Shown here in pieces: positions 1 to 9,218 of a stretch of 36,753 bases of DNA (the stretch's first letter is position 1; every line of letters begins with the position of its first letter). This DNA is from Nitrosospira sp. (GTDB lineage: Bacteria; Pseudomonadota; Gammaproteobacteria; Burkholderiales; Nitrosomonadaceae). The notes under the pieces are model-generated. The model saw nothing but the letters and a program-made list of their open reading frames with translations, did not search any database and was not told where the DNA came from. The translations under genes and the position numbers were made by a program. Location: the NCBI GenBank assembly GCA_026399575.1, contig JAPLQS010000063.1, forward strand, positions 1-36,753. The letters run 5' to 3'.

Positions 1-89
1 AACATCAATCACTTCAAAAGGAGATTAATTCCATCTCAGTCTGGTCGACTTACCCACAGCCATGTAGTACGCTACATCGCTATAACGCC

Positions 90-133
90 TGGTCAATTTT
101 CAACCGGCACAGATGGTCAGTTTTCAACCGGCA
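90..133. repeat. Two direct 20-bp repeats resembling an IS21-family element end
   Basis: Two 20-bp copies (90-109 and 114-133) differ at one base and share the core TTTTCAACCGGCA, with starts 24 bp apart. Multiple short terminal repeats containing a TTTTCAACCGG-like core are known from ends of IS21-family elements. The rest of the element would lie left of the window; no istA or istB coding sequence is visible. A separate hairpin, ATGTAG-TACG-CTACAT, lies just upstream at 62-77. The IS21 assignment is from memory of the repeat pattern, not a search. Confidence 0.45.
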
Positions 134-238
134 GCAACACCGTTAAGGTTTCTTTGGTCAGGGGGTTGCATTTATTCTGGCATATGATAAAAGTATTTTG
201 CCTACACATTTGCTACACACACAGGACAAGTTAAAACC

Positions 239-481
239 GTGAAGACCGACACACTCAATCTTCGAATATCACCAGTCACCAAGACAGCGTTGAGGTTCAT
301 CGCCGACAAGGAGATGAGAAGCATGGCCAATATGATTGACATCCTCGTCACCGACTACTGCGACAAGAACGGCGTGGCGCTACCTACCGAAAAACAAGGA
401 TTGAAAAATGCTAAGCGAAGCACTTCCGATTATTCGGCCTCCACATCAAAAACAAGAAGAAAGGGAGCTAATGACACGTAA
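239..481 (+). CDS. Small ribbon-helix-helix-like protein, first gene of the restriction-like operon
   Basis: An 80-residue basic protein starting at GTG. Residues 4-45 have the pattern of a ribbon-helix-helix DNA-binding fold: a short strand (TLNLRISP), a helix (VTKTALRFIADKEM) and a second helix beginning at RSMANMIDILV. The tail from residue 50 is Lys/Ser/Thr-rich and probably disordered. Its end overlaps the methyltransferase start by 11 bp, so the two are likely co-translated. Small RHH proteins often repress their own operon, and a controller role for the downstream restriction-like genes is a reasonable inference, but no operator was proven. It could instead be an antitoxin-like protein, although no partner toxin is visible. 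Confidence 0.7.
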   Translation: MKTDTLNLRISPVTKTALRFIADKEMRSMANMIDILVTDYCDKNGVALPTEKQGLKNAKRSTSDYSASTSKTRRKGANDT

Positions 482-1478
482 GCCAACCGAAAAGCACACC
501 CCACCCGCTAAGGCATTGTTGGCAGACTCATCCAAGTCATCGCCAGCCGTCGCACTGACAGCCGACCACGCCATCTGGCAGGGCGATACCGAAGCATTCC
601 TAAAAGCACTGCCTCTTGAACCGATCTTCGATCTTGTCGTCACATCCCCTCCCTACAACATCGGCAAGGAATACGAGAAGAAGGCAGGACTCGACAAGTA
701 TCTCGAATGGCAAAAGAGGATCATCGACGAGATCATCCCAAGGCTAAAAGAGGGTGGAAGCCTTTGCTGGCAAGTTGGCAACTACATCGACAACGGCGAG
801 ATCGTTCCGCTAGATATCGAATTCGCTCCGATTTTCAAGTCCCACGGCTTGAAGCTTAGAAACCGCATCGTCTGGCAGTTCGGCCACGGACTCCACACCA
901 AGAAGAGGTTTTCAGGCCGCTACGAAGTTGTCATGTGGTATACGAAGGGTGACGACTACGTGTTCAATCTTGATCCCGTTCGTGTTCCGGCAAAGTATCC
1001 AGGTAAAAAGCATTTCAAGGGGCCCAATGCTGGCACGTATTCCGGTAATCCTCTTGGCAAGAATCCCGAAGACGTTTGGAGTATTCCGAACGTAAAAAGT
1101 AACCACGTCGAGAAGACGGGCCATCCATGTCAGTTCCCTGTCGGCCTAATCGAACGGCTCATCCTTTCGATGACAAACGCGGGGGCGCTTGTGTTTGATC
1201 CGTTCTCCGGTGTTGCATCGTCTGGTGTTGCAGCCGCCATTCACGGCAGGCGTTTCATCGGTTGCGAAATAATGCCCGCCTATGCGAAGTCCGGTCTTAC
1301 AAGATTGCAGGAGGCGCTGGACGGAAGTGCCCGTTACCGGCCACATGACAAACCGCTCTACGATCACACCAAGAGCAATCTGTCATTAAAGCCAGGTGAA
1401 GTCCGAACCAAGAAGCCAACTAAGAAAAAAACAAAATCTGATAACTCTAACGGCCAAGAGTCAAGAGGTGAGAAATGA
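471..1478 (+). CDS. Beta-class site-specific DNA methyltransferase (SPPY type, probably N4-cytosine)
   Basis: Transfers a methyl group from S-adenosylmethionine to a base in a specific DNA site. Motif IV, TSPPY, is at residues 58-62. The AdoMet-binding motif (DPFSGVASSG) is near residue 243, preceded by a motif X-like HPCQFPVGLIERLI. The order IV...X-I is that of beta-class enzymes such as M.BamHI. The SPPY form is typical of N4-cytosine methylation, although some such enzymes methylate adenine. The start at 471 is chosen because AAGGGAG lies just upstream; an in-frame ATG at 408 would overlap the preceding gene by 74 bp. The protein is 335 residues with a Lys-rich tail. Its stop overlaps the next start (ATGA). 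BglII and BamHI methyltransferases are m4C enzymes, which fits the BglII-like gene that follows. Confidence 0.9.
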   Translation: MTRKPTEKHTPPAKALLADSSKSSPAVALTADHAIWQGDTEAFLKALPLEPIFDLVVTSPPYNIGKEYEKKAGLDKYLEWQKRIIDEIIPRLKEGGSLCWQVGNYIDNGEIVPLDIEFAPIFKSHGLKLRNRIVWQFGHGLHTKKRFSGRYEVVMWYTKGDDYVFNLDPVRVPAKYPGKKHFKGPNAGTYSGNPLGKNPEDVWSIPNVKSNHVEKTGHPCQFPVGLIERLILSMTNAGALVFDPFSGVASSGVAAAIHGRRFIGCEIMPAYAKSGLTRLQEALDGSARYRPHDKPLYDHTKSNLSLKPGEVRTKKPTKKKTKSDNSNGQESRGEK

Positions 1479-1936
1479 AGCTGGTAGCTCACTCACATCA
1501 AAATGCGTTGGCCGTTTTCCCCAAGAAGGAGCGGGAGGATATCGAGGCAGCCATTACAAATTGTCAGGTTGCACCCGCCAAGGGAGCGGCCCCAAAGATT
1601 CGGGAACTCATTGTCAATCATCTAGCCCACAACGGCTGGCCAGGAGAATTTCCCGTCGAGCCCAATTCATCGAAGATAACAATTGCTTCCGTGAAGAATG
1701 GAATAGGGCTTTGTGTCCAGACGGGAGGAAACATGGCACGGATGTATGCCGATCTGTTGAAACTGCAAACGCTCTACATGGACGACCAAGTCAGTGTCGG
1801 TGCAATCATTATGCCTACCAGTCCAGCATCAAGACTTCTGGGTGAAAACATTGCCAACTCGGATCGATTGCTGTCTGAGCTCGCGATCTTCAAAAAAGTA
1901 ATTCACATGCCAATAGCAATATTTTCATTTCAATAG
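1475..1936 (+). CDS. BglII/BstYI-family restriction endonuclease-like protein, apparently lacking the catalytic Asp and Glu
   Basis: A 153-residue protein translationally coupled to the methyltransferase (4-bp ATGA overlap). I aligned it by eye to BglII as I remember that sequence. The region from KIRELIVNHL (41-50) through MPIAIFSF (145-152) follows the BglII core, including a strand like VSVGAIIMP and the later ENIANSDRLLSEL helix. BglII uses Asp84, Glu93 and Gln95. At exactly that spacing this protein has Ala71, Cys80 and Gln82 (within ASVKNGIGLCVQ). So the fold looks kept while two metal ligands appear replaced. It is also shorter than BglII (223 residues), ending soon after the core. It may therefore be a non-cutting recognition or scaffold subunit, or a decaying nuclease with an intact frame. 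Family assignment is fairly confident; loss of activity is inference. Confidence 0.65.
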   Translation: MKLVAHSHQNALAVFPKKEREDIEAAITNCQVAPAKGAAPKIRELIVNHLAHNGWPGEFPVEPNSSKITIASVKNGIGLCVQTGGNMARMYADLLKLQTLYMDDQVSVGAIIMPTSPASRLLGENIANSDRLLSELAIFKKVIHMPIAIFSFQ

Positions 1937-1944
1937 GAATCGCC

Positions 1945-3288
1945 ATGTTTGATACTTCTAACCTGCCACAACCGAAAAAATCAAACTATGGCTGGTCCTT
2001 AGTGGATCGCCGGGAGGAGTTTAGAAAGCTGTTGGAAAAGCCGACCGGCGAAACCCACAGGGTCGCGGACTTCAAGGGAGAGACCGTTTCACTTCCCATT
2101 CTAAGAATTCCAATCAATCTTCCAAAATACCGAATATCCAACGGAAGAACGGCCTCCGCTCAGCAGGAATACGTCGCACTCCACCCCACTCAGGCCCAAG
2201 CCTCGATATTCGATGGCGACCCGGAGATTGAGGATGTTCAGATCGCCCAACATCACATATTGCAGGGGATGGTTAAGGATGAAGGGTTGGCGGCGAAATT
2301 CAAGGATTCGACTAACAAGCAGGTAGAACCAATCCTGCTTGATGAGAATGGATTCGTAGTCAATGGGAACCGGAGACTTTGTTGCTGGCGGACTCTCTAC
2401 GAAGGCAACAAGGAGTCATACGGGCACTTTGGGCACATAGACGTCGTCGTTCTGCCTCATTGCGATGAGAAGGAGCTCGACCGCCTTGAAGCGAAGTTAC
2501 AAATCGAAAGGGATATCCGCAGCGATTACTCATGGGACTCAGAAGCCAACATGATGGCTCAGAAGCAGCGTCTCCATAACTTGACCACGCTCGAACTGGC
2601 TCAAAATTACGGCAAGACCAAAAAGAACATCGAGGATATGCTGGCGATGCTCGCCATTGCTGGGGAGTATCTTGAATCGCGCCAAAGGAAAAACGAATGG
2701 TCGGTGGTCAAGGACGACCGTTATGCGTTTGAAGAACTGCAAAAGGCAATTGCCGCGACTTCATCGGCAGGAGACAAGGAACTTATAAAGGAGGCAGCGT
2801 TCGCGTTGATCGATGACTCTGGGCAGGTCGGTGAGAGGCTTTACTCCGCGATACCCAAGGTCAAGGAACACCTTGCAGCAGTCAAGGAAAGTTTAAGCGA
2901 AGCATTCCCCCTTCCCGCCCCGAAGAAAGACGAGGCTGCTGAAAATGCCTTCGGCGGGGGGCAAAAGGCCCCAGTGGCTGCCGTCAAAAGATCGGAATTT
3001 GCCTTGGTTGCAGCAATCAAGAAGGACGCTGCATCCGTCAAAAAGGCAAGGGAAGTAATCATTGAGGCAATTCGCACACAAGATGAGCAGGCAAATGAGC
3101 GGAACAGGACCGATTTTTTGTTCAAGACGATAAAGAAGGCAAACCAACTGATTCAGAATGCTGCCGGGCACGGGCTAAAACCGGAGAGCTCCGTATCAGG
3201 CGTGGAGTCTCAGCTTGAAAACCTAAAAGCCGGCATCGCCCTGATCGAGAAGTGGCTCGCCGAGAAAAAGCCGGAAGCGAAGGGCTGA
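1945..3288 (+). CDS. ParB/Srx-superfamily protein within the restriction-like operon
   Basis: A 447-residue protein starting 8 bp after the BglII-like gene. Residues about 50-170 resemble the ParB/sulfiredoxin N-terminal domain: PILRIPINLPKYRISNGR, then LLDENGFVVNGNRR near 131-144, where GNRR occupies the place of the GERR/GxxR nucleotide-binding motif. A helical segment at about 212-240 (TTLELAQNYGKTKKNIEDML) looks like the helix-turn-helix that follows this domain in ParB proteins. The C-terminal half is rich in Ala, Lys and Glu and is predicted helical or coiled. No parA is next to it, so chromosome or plasmid partition is unlikely. In this setting it more plausibly binds DNA or a nucleotide as part of the methyltransferase/helicase system. 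The precise role is unknown. Confidence 0.75.
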   Translation: MFDTSNLPQPKKSNYGWSLVDRREEFRKLLEKPTGETHRVADFKGETVSLPILRIPINLPKYRISNGRTASAQQEYVALHPTQAQASIFDGDPEIEDVQIAQHHILQGMVKDEGLAAKFKDSTNKQVEPILLDENGFVVNGNRRLCCWRTLYEGNKESYGHFGHIDVVVLPHCDEKELDRLEAKLQIERDIRSDYSWDSEANMMAQKQRLHNLTTLELAQNYGKTKKNIEDMLAMLAIAGEYLESRQRKNEWSVVKDDRYAFEELQKAIAATSSAGDKELIKEAAFALIDDSGQVGERLYSAIPKVKEHLAAVKESLSEAFPLPAPKKDEAAENAFGGGQKAPVAAVKRSEFALVAAIKKDAASVKKAREVIIEAIRTQDEQANERNRTDFLFKTIKKANQLIQNAAGHGLKPESSVSGVESQLENLKAGIALIEKWLAEKKPEAKG

Positions 3289-3292
3289 ACTT

Positions 3293-5107
3293 ATGCTCTT
3301 GTTCGATTATCGGGAGGAGGATCGGCGCGCAGTCATGTCTTGGAATGACGGTGATGTCCTGTTTGCATGGCTTGGGATCGCCAAGAACATGGCCCTTGGT
3401 GTTTCCAAGGAATCCAGAGGCGAAGGCGGTTGCGCCGTATCTCTTCCATGGTGGACGTTCCTGTCACTGCGGCCACAAATTCTGGACCTTATTGAGGGAT
3501 TCGGTCTTGAAAGTGGTAAGGATTTTCGGATTACCGAGGCTGCGACCTCCCTGCTATCGGAGGCGAGACTTCGGGCGGATGGCTATGGTGATGCGGTTGA
3601 AGCAAAGAGTCTTGACGAGGACGAACTTCTCTCCAAGTTGAAGGCTGTCGGGTTTGCCCGGAAGATGACACCACAGCAGACACGCAACGTCCGGGTAATC
3701 GGAGCTCTGCCTGCGGGAGCAACGTTTTCCGTTCCCGGAGCAGGGAAGACAACCGAGGCTCTTGCTACTTTTGGATGCAGGGCGGAACCTGGCGACAGGC
3801 TGCTTGTGGTAGCCCCAAAAAACGCCTTTGCCGCTTGGGATGAACAGTTGTCAGAATGCTTTCCACAATGGACCGAGACCTTCGTCCGTTTGAGAAAGTC
3901 AGACAAAATCCCCGGTCAGTTGCGTTCCGATCCACGGTTCATGATCATCGGCTATCAACAGTTGGCACGGGTCAGGAATATCGTGGCGGAACACCTTGCC
4001 AGCAGGCGGGTTCATGTCTTTCTTGACGAGAGCCACAGGATAAAAGGCCGAGAAAATATTTCAACAGATGCGGTTCTTGGATTTTCACATTTGCCGGTAA
4101 GTAAGCTGGTGATGTCAGGAACTCCCATGCCACAGTCGGCATCAGACCTTGTTCCCCAGTTCAATTTCCTTTTTCCTGAGATAGCCGTCGACGAATACAA
4201 TGTCATAAGTCTTGTTAAGCCGATTTACGTTCGCACAAACAAAACCGAGTTAGGACTTCCTCCCGTCACGAGGATACGTAAAACGTTGCCCATGGATCCG
4301 CTTCAAGCACGCCTTTACGATCTGATGAAAAGCGAGATAGCCCGGGAAGCAACGCAAGCCTTGGGCCTGAAAAGCAAGCAGGCGTTTAGGAAGCTCGGGC
4401 GTTCGGTCACAAGAATCCTTCAATTCGTTTCCAATCCAGCATTGCTCGCCCGTGAGATGGCTTTCGCGCACTCAGAGGAACTTGCCTCCGCACTGGCTGA
4501 GGGTCGGGGACCAAAACTCCGCTACGTGGTCAAAAGAGCGAGGGAGTTGGCACGCGAGGGAAAGAAGGTTCTCATCTGGACAACGTTCGTTGAGAACGTT
4601 GAATACCTTGCAGCGTCATTGCAAGACTTGGGCGCTGTGTTCATTCATGGCGGTGTCGATGCAGGGGACGAAAGCGACGACGATACCAGGGAGGGAAAGA
4701 TACGGTTATTCCATGATGATGATTCAGTTATGGTCATGGTTGCTAACCCTGCCGCGGCGGGAGAGGGTATCAGCTTGCACACGGTCTGCCACCATGCCAT
4801 ATACCTAGACAGGAATTTTAATGCGGCACAGTATCTCCAATCTGAGGACCGTATTCACAGAATAGGTCTTGCCCCCGGGCAAGAGACCATAATTGAAATC
4901 ATCGAGTGCGAAGCATCGGTGGATGAAACTGTCAGGCACAGACTGGAATTCAAAGTTGGCCAGATGGCGGCAGTTCTTGAAGACTCTGGCTTAAACATTG
5001 CCCCTGTTCCCATGGATACCGATGAGGAAGATGAGGAACTGGGAGCAGGAGGCATTGACGAAGGAGACATCAAGGCTTTGCTTGCCTCGCTCGGGGGGGC
5101 AGCATGA
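3293..5107 (+). CDS. SNF2/superfamily 2 DNA helicase-like ATPase
   Basis: A 604-residue ATP-dependent DNA translocase or helicase. All core SF2 motifs are visible: Walker A SVPGAGKTT (146-154), Walker B VFLDESH (242-248, DESH instead of DEAH), motif III SGTPMP (275-280), motif IV LIWTTF (427-432), motif V NPAAAGEGISLH (485-496) and motif VI QSEDRIHRIG (516-525). The form of motifs V and VI is typical of the SNF2 group. The N-terminal 130 residues are not recognised. The C-terminus is acidic (DTDEEDEEL near 575-583). It starts 4 bp after the ParB-like gene and its stop overlaps the DUF3883 start by 4 bp, implying fixed stoichiometry. It most likely moves along or remodels DNA for the companion nuclease. 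Confidence 0.9.
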   Translation: MLLFDYREEDRRAVMSWNDGDVLFAWLGIAKNMALGVSKESRGEGGCAVSLPWWTFLSLRPQILDLIEGFGLESGKDFRITEAATSLLSEARLRADGYGDAVEAKSLDEDELLSKLKAVGFARKMTPQQTRNVRVIGALPAGATFSVPGAGKTTEALATFGCRAEPGDRLLVVAPKNAFAAWDEQLSECFPQWTETFVRLRKSDKIPGQLRSDPRFMIIGYQQLARVRNIVAEHLASRRVHVFLDESHRIKGRENISTDAVLGFSHLPVSKLVMSGTPMPQSASDLVPQFNFLFPEIAVDEYNVISLVKPIYVRTNKTELGLPPVTRIRKTLPMDPLQARLYDLMKSEIAREATQALGLKSKQAFRKLGRSVTRILQFVSNPALLAREMAFAHSEELASALAEGRGPKLRYVVKRARELAREGKKVLIWTTFVENVEYLAASLQDLGAVFIHGGVDAGDESDDDTREGKIRLFHDDDSVMVMVANPAAAGEGISLHTVCHHAIYLDRNFNAAQYLQSEDRIHRIGLAPGQETIIEIIECEASVDETVRHRLEFKVGQMAAVLEDSGLNIAPVPMDTDEEDEELGAGGIDEGDIKALLASLGGAA

Positions 5108-6006
5108 ATGTCCCGGGCCTTTCTCCCACCATTGCAGTTGGATGCCTTGAACTCCTTGGAATAATAGAGAGGAATAGCGTCAAACGAGCCGACGTTTCGT
5201 CAATCTCCAAACGAGCCGACGTTTCGTCAATCTCATTTGGGGCAATTCCTTCGCAGGATGTAGTTTCAACCGCATTTAATTTGGGGTGGATTGAAGTCTC
5301 AGAGACTGGGCGTTTGCTTCGAACCCCCAAGGGGGAGCGCGCTTTTTCGCTGTCTGATATGCATGCAGGCCTTAGGGTTGTGCTGCTAGATCACATAGAG
5401 GCCGCAAGTCCTCCTTGGGCTCAGTTAGCCCCGGCGGGGCGAAGGGATGTCCTTGGCATGGCTCCGCCAGGCGTGAGGCAAATCATCGTTGATGCTGGTC
5501 TTGCCCATGGTGACGACGAGGAGACCGTTAAGTTTTGGGACATGCTGGCGGCACGGGCCAGAGGCTTACGAGATTCCCGCCTTTCGGATATTGGTCGTCA
5601 AGGGGAACGTCTGACAGTTGAGCATGAACGAAAGCGAACCGGAATCGCACCCAAGTGGATTGCCTTAGAAAGCAACTCGGATGGATACGACATTCTTTCT
5701 CGCGTGATTGACAGAGCTTCGGGATTACTGACCATTGAGGTCAAAACTACAACAGTGCCCGGTCTTTCAGGATATTTTCACGTGACACGCAAGGAATGGG
5801 AAGTAGCCACCCTGTCACTGAATCACCGTTTCCATTTGTGGGATATTTCGTCTCACAACCCGCAGCTTGCCGTTCTAGATGTAGAAGCCGTTGCCTCCCA
5901 TATTTCCAACGACCTTGGAGACGGCTTATGGGAATCGGTAAAAATTCCCTTTTCGACTTTTAGGAATTCATTCACCAACGAATGCAATTTCCCAATGCCT
6001 GACTAG
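5104..6006 (+). CDS. DUF3883 domain protein, probable PD-(D/E)xK nuclease
   Basis: A 300-residue protein, the last gene of the operon. The C-terminal half carries the DUF3883 pattern: GERLTVEHER (167-176), SDGYDILS (192-199) and LTIEVKTTT (209-217), followed by a strand/helix segment GYFHVTRKEWEVA. Glu173, Asp196, Glu212 and Lys214 sit where a PD-(D/E)xK nuclease would have its acidic and lysine residues, so this is the best candidate for the DNA-cutting subunit. DUF3883 commonly accompanies or is fused to helicases in defence loci. The N-terminal half (about 1-150) has the look of helical winged-helix modules. Residues 27-44 are an exact duplication of KRADVSSIS. ATGA overlap with the helicase gene suggests translational coupling. 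No terminator hairpin was obvious downstream. Confidence 0.8.
   Translation: MNVPGLSPTIAVGCLELLGIIERNSVKRADVSSISKRADVSSISFGAIPSQDVVSTAFNLGWIEVSETGRLLRTPKGERAFSLSDMHAGLRVVLLDHIEAASPPWAQLAPAGRRDVLGMAPPGVRQIIVDAGLAHGDDEETVKFWDMLAARARGLRDSRLSDIGRQGERLTVEHERKRTGIAPKWIALESNSDGYDILSRVIDRASGLLTIEVKTTTVPGLSGYFHVTRKEWEVATLSLNHRFHLWDISSHNPQLAVLDVEAVASHISNDLGDGLWESVKIPFSTFRNSFTNECNFPMPD
5182..5235 (+). repeat. In-frame 27-bp tandem duplication in the DUF3883 gene
   Basis: Two adjacent 27-bp units (5182-5208 and 5209-5235) are identical except for the last base. Each encodes KRADVSSIS. The unit contains the inverted pair AAACG...CGTTT. Near-perfect identity suggests a recent duplication, and the unit length keeps the frame. 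Confidence 0.9.
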
Positions 6007-6103
6007 CATCAGGAGTCGCTGGCTCGTCAGGATATTAATACCCAGCCACACTCACTTATACCGTCTGTCGATTTTAGGTGCAATCAATAAGCAGTATTCG
6101 TTT

Positions 6104-6184
6104 GTCAATATTGACTGCTATAGATTTCATTTAAAAAACGCGATATACAAATAGATAAGCTGATTTTTCGTCAATATTTTGACG
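6104..6184. promoter_or_regulatory. Pair of related palindromes upstream of the AT-rich gene pair
   Basis: A perfect 12-bp palindrome, GTCAATATTGAC, lies at 6104-6115. A second inverted repeat, CGTCAA-TATT-TTGACG, lies at 6169-6184. They share GTCAATATT and TTGAC and are 65 bp apart (start to start), in a 267-bp AT-rich gap between the DUF3883 gene and the next gene. They look like operator sites for one dimeric regulator, which I cannot identify. Confidence 0.45.
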
Positions 6185-6226
6185 TTGAATCAAATGACAA
6201 ACGGCAAGGACAATATGAAAGTGCGA

Positions 6227-6235
6227 TGCTATAAA
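6227..6235 (+). promoter_or_regulatory. Candidate extended -10 element (TGCTATAAA)
   Basis: TG-C-TATAAA sits 38 bp upstream of the ATG at 6274. No good -35 is seen at 17 bp, as is usual for extended -10 promoters. The start codon is preceded by AGGGAGAGAAGG, a good ribosome binding site. Confidence 0.4.
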
Positions 6236-6273
6236 TATATCATCGTATTTAATTTGTCTTTAGGGAGAGAAGG

Positions 6274-6480
6274 ATGGAAAAGTTGATTGATCGGATTGCG
6301 ACAGGGTTTAGGAAACTGTGCATCTCCCCGGAGGAGCAGGAAATTCTCCAAATTCTCAATAATCACTCATCATCATTTAAGGTTGATAGTGACTCCATTT
6401 CGTTGGTTAAAAACGAATACACAAAAAAGCGATTTGCCGAAGAGGCCCAAAAGGTCATCAGTTCGCTTTCCCATGATTAA
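6274..6480 (+). CDS. Small protein of unknown function
   Basis: A 68-residue soluble protein with a strong ribosome binding site (AGGGAGAGAAGG). I do not recognise it. It reads as an N-terminal helix (MEKLIDRIATGFRKLC), a short middle segment with a possible strand (SSFKVDSDSISLV), and a C-terminal helix (KKRFAEEAQKVISSL). It has no signal peptide or membrane segment. It ends 5 bp before the membrane-protein gene, so the two are probably co-transcribed. The local sequence is clearly more AT-rich than the operon to the left, suggesting a different origin. Confidence 0.65.
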   Translation: MEKLIDRIATGFRKLCISPEEQEILQILNNHSSSFKVDSDSISLVKNEYTKKRFAEEAQKVISSLSHD

Positions 6481-6485
6481 CCAGA

Positions 6486-7268
6486 ATGGGACTTTTTGCA
6501 TTTCTTGGCGTTTTGCTGTTGGTCGTTGGTTATTCGGTAATACTGACCACTCCGGAATATAAGGCACGCATTCATCATTATGATGGAGCTCATCTAAACC
6601 TATTTGCCACGCAATTAGGAGCCATGGCATTTGGTGTCAGTTTTTTTCTTGCTTATATCTGTCAAGGGTTTCTTGATTATCATTTGCAAAGAGTGCTTGC
6701 GTTTTATAAGTTGGACCCGCACCTTTTTTTGTTCACTGTCGTCAACTTATTGCTTCCATTTGCACACGCCTTGATTCGTTGGCTGTTTAATTCGTTCTTT
6801 GCGGGTGTATGGACTATCGGACAAAAAGGCTTTTCATTTTTTCGCAGATTTTTTCCCAAAGAATATTTGATTAGAGTAAGGGCGATGGTTGCTGCAAACG
6901 ACCCCCTTGAAAATATTATTTTGAATTCACTTTTGACGTATCAGCACTTATTGATTACGCTGAAAAGCGGTAAAGTATATGTCGGACAGGTTGTTCAAAT
7001 TACCGACAGAGCGGTTAATTTTCGCTCGGAACCTGCCATTTTGATGGTCTTGTCCGCAAGTGGGCATCGAAACAAAGATAGTCAGATTTGTGAGATTAAC
7101 CACTTATATAAAGAAAGGAACGCCGCTGGCGTAGAGAGCAAAGTCCTCGACGGTGAAGTCTGCATAAGACTAAATGAAGTGTTTTCCATTTCCCCGTTTA
7201 TAGGGGACACACACAATGCTCTAACAAGAACACAAATTCGAAGGCCAGTCGGCTTTGTCAGCGCCTAA
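6486..7268 (+). CDS. Membrane protein with a possible SH3/Sm-like cytoplasmic domain
   Basis: A 260-residue protein with probable membrane segments at about 2-20, 42-62 and 80-106, then a basic stretch (FSFFRRFFPKEYLIRVR). The C-terminal half is soluble. LLITLKSGKVYVGQVVQITDRA (from 155) and the later VCIRLNEVFSISPF look like the strands of a small SH3/Sm-type barrel, as found in DUF6338-like membrane proteins; this is a pattern judgement only. It is the second gene of an AT-rich pair beside a restriction-like operon, and membrane proteins with small partners in such places are sometimes effectors, but nothing in the sequence proves a defence role. Confidence 0.7.
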   Translation: MGLFAFLGVLLLVVGYSVILTTPEYKARIHHYDGAHLNLFATQLGAMAFGVSFFLAYICQGFLDYHLQRVLAFYKLDPHLFLFTVVNLLLPFAHALIRWLFNSFFAGVWTIGQKGFSFFRRFFPKEYLIRVRAMVAANDPLENIILNSLLTYQHLLITLKSGKVYVGQVVQITDRAVNFRSEPAILMVLSASGHRNKDSQICEINHLYKERNAAGVESKVLDGEVCIRLNEVFSISPFIGDTHNALTRTQIRRPVGFVSA

Positions 7269-7301: not shown

Positions 7302-9080
7302 CTACCTGAAATAAATAATGTCGTTAAGGTCCAGTGGTGCCTTGGCAAGGCCTAGGCGGGTCGCCGGGGTTCCCTTTGCGGCCTTCTTGCCCTCTGCCGT
7401 CCAGACATAGTTGTGGCAAGCCCTGATGATGGTTTGAATCTTATTGATCTGTTCGGGGCGGTAGGCTGAATATGCATTCCACACACGCCCTCTGTTGGCG
7501 GAGGAAATGACTGGGCGTTCGAGCATTGACGAGCGCCTGCGGATTCTGTTGAAGAACGAATCCACTGCGTGAAGACTGGCCTTGTTGTAAAGCCACGCCA
7601 GATGATCGGGATCGTATAACCCCATATCGGTGAGATGACAGACAGCTTTGTCTGCCTCTGACAAGGTAGGGAGGGGATGGAAGACCCAACGGTCTTTCCA
7701 TGGACCGATGGTCTGTGCCTTTGCTATCCGGTCTTTGAGCATCAGCAGTTTCACCCCGTTTTCGTCAAGGCTGGGATTGGCGGCGGCGACTGAGTCGAAC
7801 TCACCCCTTGCCCAATCCACTCGACGACGTTTCTCATCAATAGTTAAGTCCTTGGCTATACGGACGTAGAAAGCATCGCAGGACCCATCCTTGATGCGGT
7901 TTGCAAAGGCTGAGAGGCAGGCTGCCCGCATACCTGAATCCTGGTCCAGGAAAAAGCGGACCTTTGCTGTGCTGGAAAACATCTTGCGGAGAGCAAGGAA
8001 AAATCCATGGAGCGTGTATTCGGCATGGACCAGCATGCCGTTTTGGGGAAGCATGTCCTCCCTGCCAACAATCTCCGGTGCTTCAATGTCAGCTTTGAGT
8101 TTGCCGTTGGCGTAAGTCGTGGCGATATCGGATGGGAGCGTCCCAATGCCTGAAAGCCTTTTGGAGTTCATCACCGCAGAATCGTAGTCCGATTCAAGCC
8201 AGAGACGGGCAAAGCCTCTGTGGCAGGCTCCAAGCTTGTCTTCACCACGAGACTTGTGCAGGGCCTCGACCCTTAACGGATCCATTCCCGGATCAAAGTT
8301 AGGGTGCATGCCGAAGACGTAGCCGGTGGCGTTGTCCGCAGCAGCAACAGACGAGAGGGTGACATTCCTCTTGTCCTTGCGTCCTGACCAATTGATGACG
8401 TGGTCCTGACGATCAACTCCGAGGTAGAGCCTCGGTATCTCCATGTCCGAGAGGTTCCTCTCCCGTTCCGCCAGAAAGGCGAGGGACTGTTCGTGGAAGA
8501 AGTCGATTCGTTCGTAGAGGACACGCGGGGCAATGTCTGCCGCCTCGCAAATCCTTCTCAGTGGCATCCTGCCAACGAGCATGGCCATTACTATCCGGTT
8601 CTTGTCTGACTGTTGTTGCCTTGCTATGGGATTGAGGCCCTTGGGCTTGACCGAAAAGGTCACAGAGCATTTCTTGCACCGATATCTCTTGCTCCCTGCC
8701 TTGGTTACCCCAAACTCCTGATAGGCCTTGGGGACGTGTGTGGGAACCCTGTGGTTGTCGCACATCGAATCGGGACAGGTGTCTGCTGTATAGGTCTGCT
8801 CGATGATCCGCCATGCCTCTTCAAAGACCCCTTGGTTGCTTTTGAGGCCGAATATTTCACCGCAGGCGTTGCACTTTGCTGCTGGCGTTTTTGCCGCAGT
8901 GGCGACTATCGTGTAGGGGTTTGTCCCGTAGGCGGTCTTTTCTGCGACCGGGACAGTGAAGTTGGAGCAATAGGGGTTCTTGCAGTGATTGACATTGACC
9001 CCTAGGACGACTGGCGGGACTCTGGGAGTGCTTGGACTCGGGGGTTGCTGCAATACTGCCGGGGTTGTGGCTTGGGTCAT
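7302..9080 (-). CDS. Large zinc-ribbon DDE-like transposase-like protein
   Basis: A 592-residue protein if begun at the ATG at 9080; an upstream in-frame ATG at 9188 lies within the A-tract of the clpA terminator and is unlikely. Paired cysteines at 33/38, 70/73, 102/107 and 135/138 suggest two zinc ribbons, the last (RYRCKKCSVTFS) like the N-terminal region of IS1-type InsA and related transposases. A helix-turn-helix-like segment follows (MPLRRICEAADIAPRVLYERI). Possible catalytic acids are Asp223 (YLGVDRQDH), Asp379 (RFFLDQDSG) and Glu521 (MLERPV), consistent with an RNase H/DDE fold. No second transposition gene or clear terminal inverted repeats were found; only a 10-bp inverted match (7271-7280 with 9097-9106) flanks it. 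It could be a solitary insertion sequence or a domesticated transposase. Confidence 0.65.
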   Translation of the reverse strand: MTQATTPAVLQQPPSPSTPRVPPVVLGVNVNHCKNPYCSNFTVPVAEKTAYGTNPYTIVATAAKTPAAKCNACGEIFGLKSNQGVFEEAWRIIEQTYTADTCPDSMCDNHRVPTHVPKAYQEFGVTKAGSKRYRCKKCSVTFSVKPKGLNPIARQQQSDKNRIVMAMLVGRMPLRRICEAADIAPRVLYERIDFFHEQSLAFLAERERNLSDMEIPRLYLGVDRQDHVINWSGRKDKRNVTLSSVAAADNATGYVFGMHPNFDPGMDPLRVEALHKSRGEDKLGACHRGFARLWLESDYDSAVMNSKRLSGIGTLPSDIATTYANGKLKADIEAPEIVGREDMLPQNGMLVHAEYTLHGFFLALRKMFSSTAKVRFFLDQDSGMRAACLSAFANRIKDGSCDAFYVRIAKDLTIDEKRRRVDWARGEFDSVAAANPSLDENGVKLLMLKDRIAKAQTIGPWKDRWVFHPLPTLSEADKAVCHLTDMGLYDPDHLAWLYNKASLHAVDSFFNRIRRRSSMLERPVISSANRGRVWNAYSAYRPEQINKIQTIIRACHNYVWTAEGKKAAKGTPATRLGLAKAPLDLNDIIYFR

Positions 9081-9186
9081 ATATGTATAACGCATCACCA
9101 AAAATAGCGTTGACGCCCGTAGCATGAGGGGTTTAAAGAAATTTACCTCTTTCGAGTTCGTTTTTGGAGGAAAGAAAAACAAAGGC

Positions 9187-9218
9187 AAAAAAAAGCTGCC
9201 GAAAAATTCTTCGGCAGC
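9187..9218 (-). terminator. Rho-independent terminator downstream of clpA
   Basis: GCTGCCGAA (9195-9203) pairs with TTCGGCAGC (9210-9218) around a 6-nt loop. On the minus strand the hairpin is followed by a run of eight U, about 110 nt past the clpA stop. It also marks the likely boundary between the core genes and the accessory island. Confidence 0.9.

What the first reader, a model, noticed from the sequence alone, without database searches (positions are those of the whole stretch)
239..6006. Candidate undescribed restriction-like system: RHH + m4C-type methyltransferase + BglII-like protein + ParB-like + SNF2 helicase + DUF3883
Six genes lie head to tail with overlaps of 4-11 bp or gaps of 4-8 bp, which points to one functional unit. 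A type II-like methyltransferase/BglII pair is joined to an ATP-driven translocase, a ParB-fold protein and a second possible nuclease. This does not match DISARM, BREX, Dnd or type I/III layouts as I know them. A plausible model is that methylation marks self DNA, the BglII-like and ParB-like proteins recognise unmodified sites, and the helicase with DUF3883 degrades the target.
Basis: partly seen in the sequence, partly recalled or inferred. Interest (0 to 1): 0.85.

Follow-up and report, generated by a model that had tools for sequence, protein, structure and literature searches.

The report
Restriction enzyme reused as target finder
A bacterial operon carries a DNA-marking enzyme, a relative of the restriction enzyme BglII that has lost its cutting residues, a ParB-like protein, a DNA motor and a separate likely cutter, which suggests that old restriction enzymes were turned into target-finding parts of a motor-driven defence system; none of it has been tested in the laboratory.

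Summary
The six ORFs are real and placed as stated. Five (N4/N6 methyltransferase, BglII-like, ParB-like, SNF2, DUF3883) form a conserved, tightly packed unit; RHH recurs in only two other loci. Of 60 genome loci fetched with the ParB family, 31 carry BglII-like–ParB–SNF2, 30 of these with DUF3883, in at least four phyla. Main correction: the BglII-like protein has the BglII fold (predicted model, Z 21) but lacks both catalytic acids in 38 of 38 aligned copies, while DUF3883 keeps E-D-ExK in 35 of 35. In a Pfam-family search of 398 genomes, the 8 BglII relatives with intact sites lacked this cassette in the DNA seen; the 2 defective ones had it. Two sister cassettes repeat the pattern with other restriction-enzyme families (a Dcm-linked REase family; the Sau3AI C-terminal domain). 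Best reading: an ATP-dependent restriction–modification system in which a nuclease-dead restriction enzyme finds unmodified sites, ParB and SNF2 act as clamp and motor, and DUF3883 cuts. Residues, order and association are shown; mechanism and anti-phage role are inferred. Ten full-text searches of open-access papers showed no description of this cassette; a 2008 paper describes related SNF2/methylase/Vsr operons without ParB.

The parts
239..481 (+). RHH (Arc/CopG-like) small protein, probable operon regulator; not a conserved part
   Evidence: ORF; PF07878 E=0.0023 below cut-off; Arc-like repressor PHROG 5.1e-4; homologues only in L021 and L077
471..1478 (+). beta-type N4/N6 DNA methyltransferase (ATG at 408 also possible); motif TSPPY suggests N4-cytosine methylation (motif meaning recalled)
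   Evidence: PF01555 1.8e-49; PDB relatives RsrI 2.8e-26 (m6A) and PvuII 1.8e-9 (m4C); TSPPY in 33 and SSPPY in 5 of 38 homologues
1475..1936 (+). BglII/BstYI/BamHI-fold protein without the catalytic acids: proposed target-recognition subunit
   Evidence: PF09195 1.2e-7; AlphaFold2 pLDDT 95.5; Z 21.0, rmsd 1.8 over 150 residues to BglII 1d2i, similar to BstYI; A71 and C80 where intact relatives have D and E/D
1945..3288 (+). ParB/Noc/KorB-like protein with invariant NGNRR motif, HTH domain and long C-terminal helices: proposed nucleotide-dependent DNA clamp or adaptor
   Evidence: model pLDDT 87.0; best PDB matches KorB 8qa9 Z 9.6, Noc 7nfu Z 9.2, ParB 6t1f Z 9.0; invariant N140 G141 N142 R143 R144 in 25 sequences
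3293..5107 (+). SWI2/SNF2 ATPase: proposed DNA translocase
   Evidence: PF00176 2.4e-14, PF00271 1.1e-7; SVPGxGKT Walker A pattern in 62 of 63 homologues
5104..6006 (+). DUF3883/NOV_C protein: proposed nuclease (E168, D196, E212, K214)
   Evidence: PF13020 3e-9; the four residues invariant in 35 of 35; DUF3883 called a novel REase domain in passages of PMC3710099

Best explanation
A motor-driven restriction-modification system in which a former type II restriction enzyme is the target finder and no longer the cutter. Steps: (1) the methyltransferase marks a site in host DNA, probably with a GATC core as in BglII, BstYI and BamHI (inferred from the fold relatives). (2) The nuclease-dead BglII-like protein binds the same site only when it is unmodified (inferred; the loss of catalysis is shown at residue level). 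(3) The ParB-like protein is loaded as a clamp or adaptor (fold shown, role inferred). (4) The SNF2 protein translocates on the DNA (family shown, activity inferred). (5) DUF3883 cuts (intact E-D-ExK shown, activity inferred). The chassis ParB-SNF2-nuclease is shared by sister systems that carry recognisers from other restriction-enzyme families, and the methyltransferase can be exchanged.
For: Synteny in 31 of 60 ParB-fetched genome loci, 30 with DUF3883, with overlaps of a few bases, in Pseudomonadota, Bacillota, Verrucomicrobiota and Fidelibacterota (labels). BglII fold Z 21.0; catalytic D position A/F/T/S and E position C/Q/G in 38 of 38, third position Q in 38 of 38. Purifying selection on the dead gene: dN/dS 0.03-0.12 in the 5 of 8 compared pairs with a finite value. 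DUF3883 catalytic set in 35 of 35 and GYD...ExK in 17 of 17 rows of the Dcm-linked variant that cover it (read). Control: PF09195 in 398 genomes gave 10 hits; 8 with D and E/D intact lacked ParB, SNF2 and DUF3883 in the 10-18 kb seen, 2 dead ones had all (Fisher p 0.022). Four BamHI/OkrAI-like relatives keep the E and lack the cassette. The Dcm-linked variant: 20 of 20 ParB-adjacent copies lack the D and the E of ExK, while 2 of 2 copies beside the C5 methyltransferase keep them; PADLOC names that family a type II REase. A third variant uses the Sau3AI C-terminal domain alone (2reu 3.6e-42), which PMC548270 (passage) describes as having lost catalytic residues and become an effector-binding domain. 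Type I Zorya genes lie directly upstream in L015 and L019.
Against: No activity is known for any member. L039 has an intact PDDEXK_1 protein (GDGII..IIDYKT) in the recogniser's place; L044 and L028 have methyltransferase, ParB and SNF2 without a BglII-like gene. L030 and L042 have a Glu two residues from the lost Asp position. L107, a BamHI-like control, keeps the first E but has Leu for the second acid. One locus, L023, shows no methyltransferase. ParB-fetched counts are biased towards ParB-containing loci. 7 of 60 loci hold a ParB relative only.
Confidence: 0.7

Rival explanations
1. Second-tier or back-up response. A dead restriction-enzyme homologue senses target sites when modification fails or is attacked, and the ParB-SNF2-DUF3883 module then degrades all DNA in the cell, so that the system works by abortive infection rather than by ordinary restriction.
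For: In L003 and L053 an intact REase family member beside the C5 methyltransferase coexists with the dead copy in the ParB cassette; L084 has a full Sau3AI with its own dcm besides a Sau3AI C-domain protein in the ParB-SNF2 cassette.
Against: In the window and in most BglII-type loci no intact BglII-like copy was seen next to the dead one, and a methyltransferase is directly fused into the operon in 22 of 31.
Confidence: 0.15
2. The BglII-like protein is still a nuclease with an unusual active site, and SNF2, ParB and DUF3883 are helpers.
For: BglII fold is complete and Gln82, the third active-site position, is invariant in 38 of 38.
Against: Both acidic metal ligands are absent in 38 of 38 while 8 of 8 classical family members found in the same way keep them; DUF3883 keeps a full site in 35 of 35.
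Confidence: 0.06
3. The ParB-like protein is the nuclease or NTP-degrading effector, as reported for some ParB/Srx proteins.
For: Passages of PMC5512222 list DNase and NTPase activities for several ParB-like proteins.
Against: The model aligns with the CTP-binding partition proteins KorB, Noc and ParB and keeps an NGNRR motif; a separate protein has an intact nuclease site. Fold does not settle activity.
Confidence: 0.05

Closest known systems
Type II restriction endonucleases BglII, BstYI, BamHI, OkrAI
   Same: Fold of the 153-residue protein (Z 21.0 BglII, 20.8-21.0 BstYI, 18.6 BamHI, 17.6 OkrAI); partner methyltransferase
   Different: Both catalytic acids missing in 38 of 38; embedded with ParB, SNF2 and DUF3883
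CglI / NgoAVII ATP-dependent R-M systems
   Same: Methyltransferase, separate recognition protein and an SF2 motor cut DNA at unmodified sites with NTP hydrolysis (abstract and introduction of PMC5737866; PMC4267653 listing only)
   Different: CglI uses a B3 plus PLD protein and a DEAD-Z1 ATPase; here a BglII-fold protein, an SNF2 ATPase, a ParB and DUF3883
SNF2/methylase/Vsr/MORC operons of Iyer et al. 2008 (PMC2292703)
   Same: SWI2/SNF2 with REase, C5 methylase and Vsr, as in the Dcm-linked sister variant (passages)
   Different: ParB does not occur in that text; BglII-like genes are not mentioned in the passages seen; no statement there that the REase is dead
Type I Zorya, DISARM, BREX, Dpd SNF2 helicases
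   Same: SNF2 family resemblance (ZorD 7.9e-19, DpdE 1.7e-13, DrmD 3.6e-7)
   Different: Half-length matches only; none of the other signature genes in the window's first 7.3 kb
Sau3AI C-terminal domain
   Same: Precedent for a restriction-enzyme domain that lost catalysis and became a DNA-binding effector domain (passage of PMC548270); used as a separate protein in the sister cassette L002, L067
   Different: MutH-like, not BglII-like; in Sau3AI it is fused to an active domain

Membership tests
Type II R-M system, BglII family (PF09195) | BglII fold and family profile | tested here: met
   PF09195 32.1 bits over cut-off 26; Z 21.0 to 1d2i
Type II R-M system, BglII family (PF09195) | Catalytic D...(E/D)-x-(E/Q) of the endonuclease | tested here: not met
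   A71 and C80 in the window; 38 of 38 homologues lack both acids; 8 of 8 classical members keep them
Type II R-M system, BglII family (PF09195) | Cleavage without ATP at or near the site | not testable with these tools
   needs purified protein
CglI/NgoAVII type | R protein with B3 and PLD domains, Z1-type SF2 ATPase | tested here: not met
   Pfam scan shows BglII, SNF2 and NOV_C instead
Type I R-M | HsdS specificity subunit and HsdM/HsdR | tested here: not met
   no such Pfam, NCBIfam or PADLOC match in the six proteins at E<=1 (only the best 25 PADLOC rows are shown for the two longest lists)
DISARM / BREX / Zorya | signature genes besides a SNF2 helicase (drmA/B, pglZ/brxC, zorAB) | tested here: not met
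   eight proteins of window 239-7268 scanned, none matches these
PD-(D/E)XK nuclease (DUF3883/NOV_C) | conserved E-D-ExK residues | tested here: met
   E168, D196, E212, K214 in 35 of 35
PD-(D/E)XK nuclease (DUF3883/NOV_C) | DNA cleavage | not testable with these tools
   no solved homologue by sequence
ParB CTPase superfamily | ParB N-domain plus HTH fold | tested here: met
   model matches KorB, Noc, ParB as the top rows, Z 9.6-9.0; no sequence-level match to a ParB of the PDB
ParB CTPase superfamily | CTP binding and clamp closure | not testable with these tools
   NGNRR motif invariant; activity needs protein

The most novel reading that the evidence does not exclude
A new type of ATP-dependent restriction: one chassis (ParB-like clamp, SNF2 motor, DUF3883 or PLD-type nuclease) on which restriction enzymes of at least three families have separately been stripped of catalysis and reused as interchangeable target-recognition subunits, each paired with its own kind of DNA methyltransferase, so that any type II restriction enzyme could in principle be turned into a guide for a processive DNA-destroying machine.
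Probability: 0.55. Interest if true: 0.88.

Novelty: new variant of a known kind. Interest (0 to 1): 0.78.

Why it matters
It would give a clear case in which an enzyme family known for cutting DNA is kept, under selection, for reading DNA only, with the cut handed to another protein. It predicts that many genes annotated as restriction enzymes are not nucleases, explains why a type II-like pair sits with a motor, and makes the question of how a recognition event is passed to a translocase testable with small, separable proteins and ready specificity swaps. The possible use of a ParB clamp in restriction would also be new, as far as the papers searched show.

Tried and rejected
Rejected: an active type II BglII pair (catalytic residues); named systems in PADLOC, NCBIfam and Pfam; chance gene order.

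Led nowhere: first genome scan with the window's ParB alone found no relative; E. coli genomes, no match to window 1-6600; the window's BglII-like protein against 50,697 phage records, no match; phmmer of the BglII-like and DUF3883 proteins against the PDB gave only chance rows; profile of DUF3883 and of ParB against PDB sequences, no true match; promoter and terminator scan at the level of shuffles. 60 relatives in the family and order: only the window's own genome had the ParB gene (1 of 61). Class search with the BglII-like alignment: 2 of 369 genomes, one being the window and the other an intact OkrAI-like enzyme.

Limits: the 31 of 60 count comes from a ParB query. The Fisher value 2.0e-5 pools 7 dead against 12 controls that I chose from several BglII-type searches, with one dead locus (L078) cut inside ParB and one control (L107) of doubtful activity; I lean on the plain 2 against 8 instead. 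Of 4 plasmid hits, 3 were opened (H52 not). Of 11 plasmid records in which the SNF2 match covers 80% or more, 8 were looked at (L001, L003, L004, L006, L007, L083-L085), all 8 with a ParB-like gene directly upstream; H15, H17 and H18 were not opened. Control locus L102 begins 171 bases before its BglII gene, so one side is unseen. The strict motif VI pattern missed 14 of 63 SNF2 rows, which says more about the pattern than about the proteins; 59 of 63 rows went into the tree. One search compared residues by alignment; I did not superpose coordinates. The names of BglII, BstYI and BamHI catalytic and base-contact residues, the target sequences of these enzymes, and IS21 ends are recalled.

Not covered: subscription papers, preprints and REBASE were not searched, so prior description there is possible.

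Full report
What is there. The six ORFs of the finding are present at the stated coordinates, on one strand, with overlaps of 11, 4 and 4 bases and gaps of 8 and 4. Family searches support an RHH protein (weak), an N4/N6 methyltransferase, a BglII-family protein, a SNF2 ATPase and a NOV_C/DUF3883 protein; the ParB assignment rests on a predicted model (pLDDT 87.0) whose best PDB matches are KorB, Noc and ParB (Z 9.6, 9.2, 9.0), not on sequence. No PADLOC system fits the set.

It is a conserved unit. A search for the ParB family in 84,980 species genomes gave 60 loci. By homology (recounted) 31 have BglII-like, ParB and SNF2 genes in this order, 30 of them followed by DUF3883; the exception, L023, ends 180 bases after SNF2. 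Beside the 31 stand 22 methyltransferases of the window's kind, 6 C5-cytosine methyltransferases (L008, L015-L019; Pfam shown for three of them), 2 other N4/N6 enzymes (L024, L025) and none in L023. Gene spacing is tight throughout. Of the other 29 loci, 15 carry a different protein in the BglII position (14 with SNF2, 12 with DUF3883, 14 with a C5 methyltransferase, 12 with Vsr), 1 carries a Sau3AI C-domain protein, 2 begin inside the cassette (L022, L043), 3 have methyltransferase, ParB and SNF2 without a BglII-like gene (L028, L039, L044), 1 has ParB and SNF2 only (L066) and 7 a ParB relative alone. RHH is found only in the window, L021 and L077. A SNF2 tree of 59 rows groups the recogniser types on it (6 changes against 22.3 by shuffling), with labels from Pseudomonadota, Bacillota, Verrucomicrobiota and Fidelibacterota on the BglII side and also Actinomycetota on the other.

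The BglII-like protein looks dead as a nuclease and alive as a gene. The predicted model (pLDDT 95.5) lies on BglII (1d2i, Z 21.0, rmsd 1.8, 150 residues) and BstYI (Z 21.0 and 20.8), then BamHI and OkrAI, far above the next fold (Z 6.1). At the two acidic positions of the family it has Ala71 and Cys80. In 38 of 38 aligned homologues both acids are absent (first: T 19, F 14, A 3, S 2; second: C 22, Q 15, G 1), while the third position is Gln in 38 of 38. Two rows, L030 and L042, have a Glu two residues from the first position. The gene is under purifying selection: of eight pairs compared, five gave a finite dN/dS for it, 0.03 to 0.12, and three were saturated.

Control. To test whether the loss goes with the cassette I searched PF09195 in 398 genomes of the phylum: 10 hits. 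Eight are classical family members with D and E or D at the two positions; in the 10 to 18 kb fetched around them no ParB, SNF2 or DUF3883 relative was found at E 1e-4. The other two, the window and L105, are defective and have the full cassette (Fisher p 0.022). Four BamHI/OkrAI-like relatives (L086, L106-L108) keep the catalytic Glu and have no cassette, though L107 has Leu at the next acid. Defective BglII-like genes fetched by their own sequence in viral contigs (8 loci, 4 of them not seen before) all adjoin ParB; L078 and L082 are cut before the end of the cassette.

The likely cutter is DUF3883. Glu168, Asp196, Glu212 and Lys214 are invariant in 35 of 35 homologues, and the pattern GYD...ExK stands in all 17 rows of the other variant that cover it. 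DUF3883 was called a novel REase domain in a 2013 survey (PMC3710099, passages) and treated as a presumptive type II REase group in a 2023 survey (PMC10609329, passage).

The same pattern in sister cassettes. In the Dcm-linked variant the protein before ParB belongs to a type II REase family of PADLOC (2.8e-19); L003 has a second copy beside its C5 methyltransferase that matches the family at 2e-137, as does L053 by alignment. The two methyltransferase-side copies keep the acidic residues and Lys of (D/E)xK; the 20 ParB-side copies all have I or V in place of the E and V or I in place of an upstream D (L006 and L054 are the same plasmid lineage). In Lactobacillales, the gene after ParB and a PLD-like SNF2 protein (PbeA-like N-terminus) equals the C-terminal half of Sau3AI alone (2reu, 3.6e-42; PADLOC positions 273-526 of 527). 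That half of Sau3AI has lost its catalytic residues and serves as an effector-binding domain according to a passage of PMC548270. In Priestia (L084) such a C-domain protein lies by the ParB-SNF2 pair, while a full Sau3AI with an intact ELK motif sits by its own dcm. An exception is L039, whose protein in this place has an intact PDDEXK_1 site.

How it may work. The methyltransferase marks the host; the dead enzyme binds the unmarked site; ParB-like and SNF2 proteins carry the signal along DNA; DUF3883 cuts. The parts, residues and association are shown here; binding, translocation, cutting and phage defence are inferred. Defence is further suggested by type I Zorya genes A to D directly upstream, same strand, in L015 and L019.

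Known or new. Ten full-text searches found no paper describing this cassette. The nearest are the SNF2, methylase, Vsr and MORC operons of PMC2292703 (passages; ParB occurs 0 times) and the CglI system (PMC5737866, abstract and part of the introduction). Passages on BREX-related systems (PMC12839542) and Dnd (PMC10853773) show other architectures. The library lacks most subscription papers. I therefore rate it a new variant of ATP-dependent restriction-modification, with a bolder reading given in the section on the most novel reading.

Noticed in passing
L015 690-8459 and L019 749-8508: Complete type I Zorya gene sets (ZorA, B, C, D by PADLOC) end within tens of bases of the BglII-like gene, same strand, in two unrelated genomes (Fidelibacterota and Sphingomonas).
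   Followed up: partly
L003 1821-2687 and 6036-6902; L053 4543-5403 and 5529-6380: Two copies of one REase family in the same island, one with and one without the (D/E)xK acid, the intact copy beside the C5 methyltransferase.
   Followed up: yes
L039 8113-8976: Pelagibacteraceae version with an intact PDDEXK_1 protein in the recogniser's place.
   Followed up: partly
window 90-133: Two 20-base repeats 24 apart just inside the contig end, like the multiple end repeats of IS21-type elements (recalled); the contig may have broken at an insertion sequence.
   Followed up: no
window 7302-9188 (-): 628-aa ORF with CxxC pairs, no Pfam match at E 0.01 and no PHROG match.
   Followed up: no
window 6486-7268: 260-aa protein with a PHROG match of unknown function (phrog_3630, 8.7e-23).
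   Followed up: no
L004 4756-5665, L006 10238-12007, L022 1358-3186, L027 8866-9453, L028: Cassettes that look damaged: split DUF3883 ORF, an IS481 transposase gene between SNF2 and DUF3883, split SNF2 ORF, ParB fragment, shortened SNF2.
   Followed up: no
L097-L104: Classical BglII-family genes with intact sites had no match to the window's methyltransferase nearby, so their modification partner is unknown.
   Followed up: no
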